Shown here: positions 38,242 through 38,366 of the stretch, piece after piece
Numbering within the stretch: the first letter of the stretch is position 1
Layout: the number at the start of each line of letters is the position of its first letter
From: Bacteroides eggerthii
GTDB lineage: Bacteria > Bacteroidota > Bacteroidia > Bacteroidales > Bacteroidaceae
Length of the DNA stretch: 64,000 bases
Direction of reading: 5' to 3'
NCBI RefSeq assembly: GCF_025146565.1
Contig: NZ_CP102258.1
Location: forward strand, 1,272,001-1,336,000
Made by a program: the position numbers and the translations under genes
Notes under the pieces: generated by a model
Seen by the model: the letters and a program-made list of their open reading frames with translations, nothing else
What the model was told of the DNA's origin: nothing
The model's database searches: none

Positions 38242-38366
38242 GTACCGAGTAATTCCACCGTTTGGTACGGCTTGTACCTTACTAAGGTACGGTCTGTACC
38301 ATGGCAAGGTACAAGCTGTACCATAGTGAGATATAAGCCGTACCAAGGCAAGGTACAAAAAGGCAC
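38242..38366. repeat. Array B: 22-bp-period palindromic repeat
   Basis: Five 15-bp units at exact 22-bp steps: GGTACGGCTTGTACC (38264-38278), GGTACGGTCTGTACC (38286-38300), GGTACAAGCTGTACC (38308-38322), GATATAAGCCGTACC (38330-38344) and GGTACAAAAAGGCAC (38352-38366). The first three are perfect palindromes and the last two decay. Spacers are 7 bp (TTACTAA, ATGGCAA, ATAGTGA, AAGGCAA). A decayed unit ending AATTCC (38242-38256) precedes in phase, as in array A. The palindrome arms differ wholly from array A but length, spacing and left flank agree. Confidence 0.88.

What the first reader, a model, noticed from the sequence alone, without database searches (positions are those of the whole stretch)
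38242..38366. Array B repeats the architecture of array A with unrelated sequence
Five units of 15 bp with 7-bp spacers again give an exact 22-bp period, here with GGTAC...GTACC arms in place of TAAACC...GGTTTA. Both arrays have AATTCC exactly 7 bp before the first palindrome (26194-26199 and 38251-38256). Two loci 12 kb apart sharing unit length, spacer length, period and left flank but not arm sequence suggest a family defined by form, as if one mechanism builds or binds it. I know of no feature class with precisely this definition, but cannot search.
Basis: seen in the sequence. Interest (0 to 1): 0.75.

Follow-up and report, generated by a model that had tools for sequence, protein, structure and literature searches.

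The report
Intergenic palindrome arrays, fixed 22-bp pitch
Bacteroides genomes carry many short, mostly intergenic arrays of palindromes that recur every 22 bases although their letters differ from family to family and from species to species, which likely makes them docking rows for a set of still unknown DNA-binding proteins.

Summary
Array B is real and not chance. In 49% of the host genome, period-22 arrays number 46; periods 19, 20, 25 and 26 give 0-1, period 23 gives 2, period 21 gives 12. Eighty loci of relatives give 56. Arrays B (GTACC) and A (TAAAC) belong to two of 11 unrelated arm families that hold 47 of 53 host arrays, each family at two or more places (grouped by eye). The intergenic region upstream of the orthologous gene holds arrays of the same pitch with other arms in other species. 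Half-sites, pitch and a C/G centre are kept in the GTACC family while spacers diverge, without pair covariation inside units. Gene orientation is neutral and folding shows no strand preference. Likely mechanism (inferred): homodimeric DNA-binding proteins docked on one face of the helix, one per two turns. No protein was identified. Some arrays are also array-wide inverted repeats, so a hairpin role remains a rival. Nine paper searches listed no description of such arrays.

The parts
38264..38366 (.). Array B: five GGTAC-N5-GTACC units, pitch 22 bp (first unit of the other frame starts at the ATTCC half-site, 38252)
38251..38256 (.). AATTCC: position of the preceding, degenerate GTACC half-site
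38228..38246 (-). Cap-like end of array B (outward GGTACATGCAAGTTTTTGG), a weak copy of the GTACC-family cap
38175..38209 (+). Terminator-like stem with T-rich tail between the upstream gene and array B
   Evidence: sequence; shorter stem 38191-38205
38413..38420 (+). TACCTTTG, fits the Bacteroides -7 box TAnnTTTG (consensus recalled), between array B and the ABC-F gene
   Evidence: sequence
37202..38113 (+). Upstream ORF, 303 aa, no Pfam family
38451..40421 (+). Downstream ORF, 656 aa, ABC-F type ATPase
26207..26287 (.). Array A: TAAACC-N3-GGTTTA units, pitch 22 bp, TAAAC family
24849..26108 (+). ORF upstream of array A, M16 peptidase family
26316..27653 (+). ORF downstream of array A, MATE transporter

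Best explanation
Array B is one of a genome-wide class of mostly intergenic arrays whose palindromes repeat every 22 bp, and it is likely a docking row on which a homodimeric DNA-binding protein would sit once every two helical turns. Shown: the pitch, half-sites alternating in orientation about every 11 bp, conserved half-sites with diverged spacers in the GTACC family, 11 unrelated arm families in one genome, different arms upstream of the same gene in different species, and no preference for gene orientation. Inferred: each arm family has its own trans-acting protein, these proteins are paralogues with one binding geometry, and their specificities turn over fast. Untested: what docking does; an architectural or selfish chromosomal role is judged likelier than control of the neighbouring gene. 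Growth of arrays by inverted copying of units is inferred from arrays that are partly inverted repeats of themselves.
For: Period scans: 46 arrays at 22 against 0-2 at 19, 20, 23, 25, 26 and 12 at 21; 26 host and 56 relatives. RTACCA half-sites on one strand lie 22, 44, 66 bp apart 28, 22, 17 times against 2 and 1 at 21 and 23. In 58 GTACC units from 12 arrays the centre base, not used for selection, is C or G in 56; adjacent units differ at 15 of 368 arm positions (arms were used for selection) and at 217 of 408 spacer positions. No covariation of pairs inside units, z -1.9 to +1.3. Family patterns with zero control matches in the host: GTACC 44 matches at 14 loci, TAAAC 51 at 9, ATTAAAAG 16 at 4. 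Orientation of 71 intergenic arrays 46/15/10 (tandem/divergent/convergent) against background 488/174/120. Sense and antisense fold alike, 25 against 21 of 46. Neighbours of 14 GTACC arrays share no function.
Against: No cognate protein was found or sought by experiment. Array-wide pairing beats column shuffles in 6 of 7 families and re-dealt spacers in the GTACC family, 0 of 150 between arrays, 9 of 150 within arrays; spacer-only pairing is above its null at about 0.01. Two counts lean to G-U over A-C on the sense strand, 79 to 55 and 13 to 5. The pitch is not strict in every family: AGTTAAC half-sites are 23 bp apart twice and 22 once. The TGGGA..TTCAGTCG family is hardly palindromic.
Confidence: 0.45

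Rival explanations
1. The arrays act as long hairpins, in RNA or in extruded single-stranded DNA; a whole array can fold into one stem, and 22 bp is two turns of an 11-bp A-form helix (helix value recalled).
For: Array B folds at -62.8 and -55.6 kcal/mol on its two strands, z -8.1 and -6.7 against dinucleotide shuffles; 6 of 7 families fold better than column-shuffled versions; GTACC arrays beat re-dealt spacers, driven by 1310252, 1582060 and 2709977 of 13. G-U leaning.
Against: No covariation of pairs inside units; no strand preference, mean difference 0.06 +- 0.99 kcal/mol; ten of 13 GTACC arrays show no clear excess; exact spacing between units is not needed for hairpins; TAnnTTTG lies before the array in 6 of 46 tandem cases, so few arrays look like 5' leader parts.
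Confidence: 0.22
2. The arrays are miniature mobile elements of the BrickBuilt kind, spread by a transposase, with the 22-bp repeats as inner minisatellite.
For: Each of 11 families is dispersed at two or more places; a one-sided cap recurs at GTACC arrays; in genome G019 GTACC-type arrays with shared short ends lie at eight places.
Against: No terminal inverted repeats at 12 GTACC arrays (longest shared inverted word 7 bases, once) and no direct repeats at the ends; flanks of same-family arrays differ; arms are conserved while spacers diverge, which simple copying would not give.
Confidence: 0.2
3. Ordinary minisatellites made by slippage, without function.
For: Unit number changes by whole units: 6 in L104 and 4 in L107 between nearly identical flanks.
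Against: Slippage would not favour period 22 over 20, 23 or 25, nor keep half-sites while spacers diverge, nor repeat the same arms at many places.
Confidence: 0.08

Closest known systems
BrickBuilt, a 23-nt minisatellite inside a MITE of Porphyromonas gingivalis (PMC4596501; outline, sections 5, 7 part 1 of 2, 8 and passages read)
   Same: Bacteroidales; multi-copy; intergenic; tandem repeats of about two helical turns; predicted long stem-loops; unit number varies between strains
   Different: One sequence family, 23 nt, 1 to 22.8 repeats, leader and tail with IS5-like inverted repeats; here 11 sequence families, 22 bp, a palindromic unit in most families, no terminal inverted repeats found
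REP / BIME elements of enterobacteria (recalled)
   Same: Short intergenic palindromes, many copies, sometimes in alternating clusters
   Different: One conserved sequence family per genome and no fixed 22-bp pitch; BIMEs avoid divergent regions (recalled), these arrays do not
Iterons, centromere sites and phage operator rows (recalled)
   Same: Sites of a dimeric or cooperative protein repeated about every two helical turns
   Different: Those lie at one origin, centromere or operator set with a known protein; here dozens of arrays are dispersed over a chromosome and no protein is known

Membership tests
BrickBuilt / MITE | Terminal inverted repeats | tested here: not met
   60-base flanks of 12 GTACC arrays: longest shared inverted word is 7 bases, in one array
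BrickBuilt / MITE | Target site duplication | tested here: not met
   Shared direct words of 7 or more bases at 2 of 12 arrays, not at the array ends
BrickBuilt / MITE | 23-nt repeat unit of one sequence family with leader and tail | tested here: not met
   Period 22 in 46 host clusters against 2 at 23; 11 arm families; only a one-sided cap
REP / BIME | One conserved palindromic sequence family | tested here: not met
   Unrelated arm families with one pitch
REP / BIME | Associated RAYT transposase | not tested
   No search for this gene was made; none of the 28 neighbours of 14 GTACC arrays matched a transposase family
CRISPR array | Unique spacers of about 20-50 nt between repeats (recalled) | tested here: not met
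   Spacers of GTACC and TAAAC units are 3-7 bp
CRISPR array | cas genes nearby | not tested
   Not searched for as such; the 30 neighbours scanned gave no cas family
Operator array of a dimeric DNA-binding protein | Conserved half-sites at fixed helical spacing | tested here: met
   for the GTACC family; weaker or mixed for other half-sites
Operator array of a dimeric DNA-binding protein | A protein that binds it | not testable with these tools
   No binding data
Operator array of a dimeric DNA-binding protein | Preference for promoter regions | tested here: not met
   Convergent regions hold 10 of 71 arrays against 120 of 782 background regions

The most novel reading that the evidence does not exclude
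Bacteroides chromosomes are studded with dozens of docking rows built to one 22-bp ruler, each set read by its own member of a fast-diversifying family of dimeric chromosome-binding proteins; form is kept while sequence is replaced from species to species, a bacterial counterpart of satellite DNA with PRDM9-like turnover.
Probability: 0.3. Interest if true: 0.92.

Novelty: new variant of a known kind. Interest (0 to 1): 0.75.

Why it matters
A class of element held together by geometry and not by sequence is missed by every search that works by similarity. If the arrays bind proteins, one Bacteroides genome would hold about ten unknown chromosome-wide DNA-binding systems, and the same gap filled with different families in different species is a natural experiment on how binding specificity turns over. 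The period scan is a simple sequence-free test that can be run on any genome.

Tried and rejected
Shared AATTCC flank: rejected (place of the preceding half-site). Chance: rejected. Operator of the neighbouring gene: disfavoured, convergent regions are used as often as expected and neighbours share no function. Terminator: disfavoured, divergent regions are used too. A generic covariation count (1268 pairs against 1198 shuffled, 50 of 90 arrays used) was set aside because worn end units inflate it; the same caveat weakens the 90-array inverted-repeat comparison (5.55 against 4.99) and the within-array families. Transposon ends: not found. Cap as end of a larger parent element: the ten caps that made the matrix are among the top 11 matches in the fetched half of the genome, one lone match (160611) outranks three of them, and nothing larger was found. 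GTACC arrays in phages: 9 viral contigs match a two-unit pattern exactly, 6 of them also pass the period-22 test; kinship was not tested. Rfam: no family in the window.

Full report
Observation. Array B is as described: GGTAC-N5-GTACC units at 38264, 38286, 38308, 38330 and 38352, the last two worn. Array A has the same pitch. The window is position 1272001-1336000 of a 4,206,509-base chromosome. The closest named relatives for the ABC-F gene are Bacteroides clarus and B. gallinarum, 95% identity.

Chance and class. I scanned without any sequence model: identity of each base with the base P positions on, over 44 positions, at least 29 matching. In 1,253,500 bases of the host, period 22 gave 26 clusters; in 80 loci around the ABC-F gene of relatives (1,515,491 bases) it gave 56; periods 17, 19, 20, 25 and 26 gave 0 or 1, period 21 gave 9 and 15, period 23 gave 1 and 12, period 44 (a multiple) 15 and 33; a Markov null gave none at 22. 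With 2,053,500 host bases the count is 46, against 12 at 21 and 2 at 23. Some of those stretches were chosen because they held GTACC arrays; the unselected first 800 kb holds 12. Scaling both ways suggests roughly 60 to 95 arrays in the genome (inference). In 261,111 bases from 20 genomes of other families of the order there was 1 cluster at 22 and 2 at 23; in 315,934 bases from 20 stretches of the same genus there were 8 at 22, two of them in stretches chosen for GTACC matches.

Families. Of 53 host clusters at 28 of 44, 47 fall by eye into 11 arm families, each at two or more places: RTACC/GGTAY (13), GTTTA/TAAAC (5, array A among them), GATTTASTAAATC (4), ATTAAAAG/CTTTTAAT (4), AAACGnATnATCYGTTT (4, two of them in copies of a ribosomal RNA operon region), TGGGA..TTCAGTCG (4, hardly palindromic), GAAGTTAACTTC (3), TCTCATGAGA (3), GTTTCAAC/GTTGAAAC (3), TCAGTCA/TGAGTCA (2), GACTGAG/CAGTATAC (2); six stay unassigned. 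Whole-genome searches of the host give GTACC at 14 loci (44 matches), TAAAC at 9 (51 matches), ATTAAAAG at 4 (16 matches), each with 0 control matches, and further loci of other families. Consensus symmetry of the 46 arrays averages 6.96 of 11 pairs against 5.77 for shuffled letters; 13 of 46 are significant one by one, and so are 5 of 14 at period 21.

Other species. The three patterns occur in 7, 4 and 5 of 61 genomes, the host included (control matches 2, 0 and 0 in all), so families are lineage-restricted. Within 600 bases upstream of the orthologous ABC-F gene, 12 of 76 usable loci have a period-22 array at 27 of 44, against 0 to 4 for periods 17-21 and 23-27. Their arms differ: GACTGAG/CTCAG in B. 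clarus, GAAACG in B. cutis, CATAACGACTGAAT in B. fluxus, GGACTGTACAGTCC in Phocaeicola faecalis. B. gallinarum shows only a faint array by eye, and most of the 76 loci have none. At about 4.0-4.4 kb downstream of the gene start 14 of the 80 loci hold arrays, again of several families (not all loci reach that far). Four of these (a MAG, B. timonensis, B. stercorirosoris, B. oleiciplenus) share a TGCCA/TGGCA array; in the MAG it starts four bases after the stop codon, with 6 units, and in B. oleiciplenus 4 units lie between nearly identical flanks; the inner bases of the 18 exact units differ (exact arms were the search rule).

Anatomy. 58 GTACC units from 12 arrays give RTACCAA, a C/G centre (56 of 58), TTGGTAY and five free bases. 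RTACCA half-sites on one strand lie 22, 44 or 66 bp apart 28, 22 and 17 times; 21 and 23 occur 2 and 1 times; the TAAAC and ATTAAAAG half-sites behave alike on smaller numbers, while AGTTAAC shows 23 twice and 22 once. Eleven of the 12 GTACC arrays that pass (at least three units, up to two arm mismatches) have exactly five units and one has three; two more GTACC arrays have a worse unit and did not pass. ATTAAAAG arrays have three units at all four host loci. One end of GTACC arrays carries a cap, outward YGGTAYRYGTATS and often TGTTGAT, five or six bases after the last half-site, in 10 of 13 host arrays and 2 of 6 arrays of relatives, by eye. One-sided ends are visible by eye in the TAAAC and ATTAAAAG families too.

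DNA or RNA. Pairs inside units do not covary (16 arrays, 77 units). The 46 arrays between co-directional genes fold equally on both strands: sense better in 25, antisense in 21, mean difference 0.06 +- 0.99 kcal/mol. Two counts lean towards G-U over A-C on the sense strand: 79 to 55 and 13 to 5. TAnnTTTG (Bacteroides -7 box, recalled) lies between array and next gene in 29 of 46 and before the array in 6; terminator-like sites lie before the array in 18 and after it in 25. Array B lies between a terminator-like stem and such a box. Against a pure protein reading, arrays fold better than column-shuffled versions in 6 of 7 families, the TGGGA family being the exception; GTACC arrays fold better than sets with re-dealt spacers, 0 of 150 between arrays and 9 of 150 within arrays, mostly through array B and the arrays at 1582060 and 2709977 of 13; spacer-only pairing exceeds its null at about 0.01. 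At 1582060 neighbouring units are inverted copies, spacers included, which suggests growth by inverted copying; a selected hairpin is not excluded.

Context. Of 90 arrays (26 host, 56 + 8 relatives), 46 lie in tandem, 15 in divergent and 10 in convergent regions, 12 inside naive ORF calls and 7 at sequence edges; background regions of 100 bp or more are 488/174/120. The 28 neighbours of 14 GTACC arrays include trigger factor, a MutS-like protein, GidA, a glutamate-5-kinase-like protein, fumarase, prolyl-tRNA synthetase, TamB, RmuC and one LuxR-type regulator; four match no family; no theme appears.

Mechanism. Conserved half-sites, exact pitch over diverged spacers, alternation about once per helical turn and strand symmetry fit protein dimers docked on one face of DNA. 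Many families with one geometry in one genome imply paralogous proteins; other arms in other species imply fast change of specificity. The protein, the purpose of docking and the cause of turnover are unknown.

Literature. Ten paper searches: one for BrickBuilt and nine for descriptions of such arrays; their listings showed none. Most subscription papers are not held. Of PMC4596501 I read the outline, sections 5, 7 (part 1 of 2) and 8 and passages; of PMC5771137 passages; other papers only as listings.

Noticed in passing
Host genome, GTACC arrays: GC skew places the origin near 0.72 Mb and the terminus near 2.81 Mb; the 14 GTACC loci leave two large gaps of about 1.1 Mb in the two mid-arms (two largest gaps together, 0.049 against random; largest gap alone 0.23; post hoc). 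The TAAAC family does occupy the mid-arms.
   Followed up: partly
L080 3375-3501 and 2801-2872: An AAACG-family array lies about 1.1 kb before the 16S rRNA gene of a ribosomal operon, near a match to the FopS sRNA family; copies 98-99% identical to it lie at two more host places.
   Followed up: partly
L102 and L108, upstream of the ABC-F gene: Mediterranea-type records carry arrays of period 23 there (CAGTGCTTCGTCAGGGTGTCATG) instead of 22.
   Followed up: no
L182, L287-L293 (genome G019): GTACC-type arrays with near-identical units at eight places share short ends (left ..GCTGTCT in most, right AATTTGCCCTCCTGA in most) although longer flanks differ in three; looks like a recent spread.
   Followed up: partly
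L238-L246: Nine viral contigs hold two GTACC-N7-GGTA sites exactly 22 bp apart; L240 has several such palindromes at 22-23 bp.
   Followed up: partly
window 44301-44331: A 14-bp tandem repeat, 2.2 copies.
   Followed up: no
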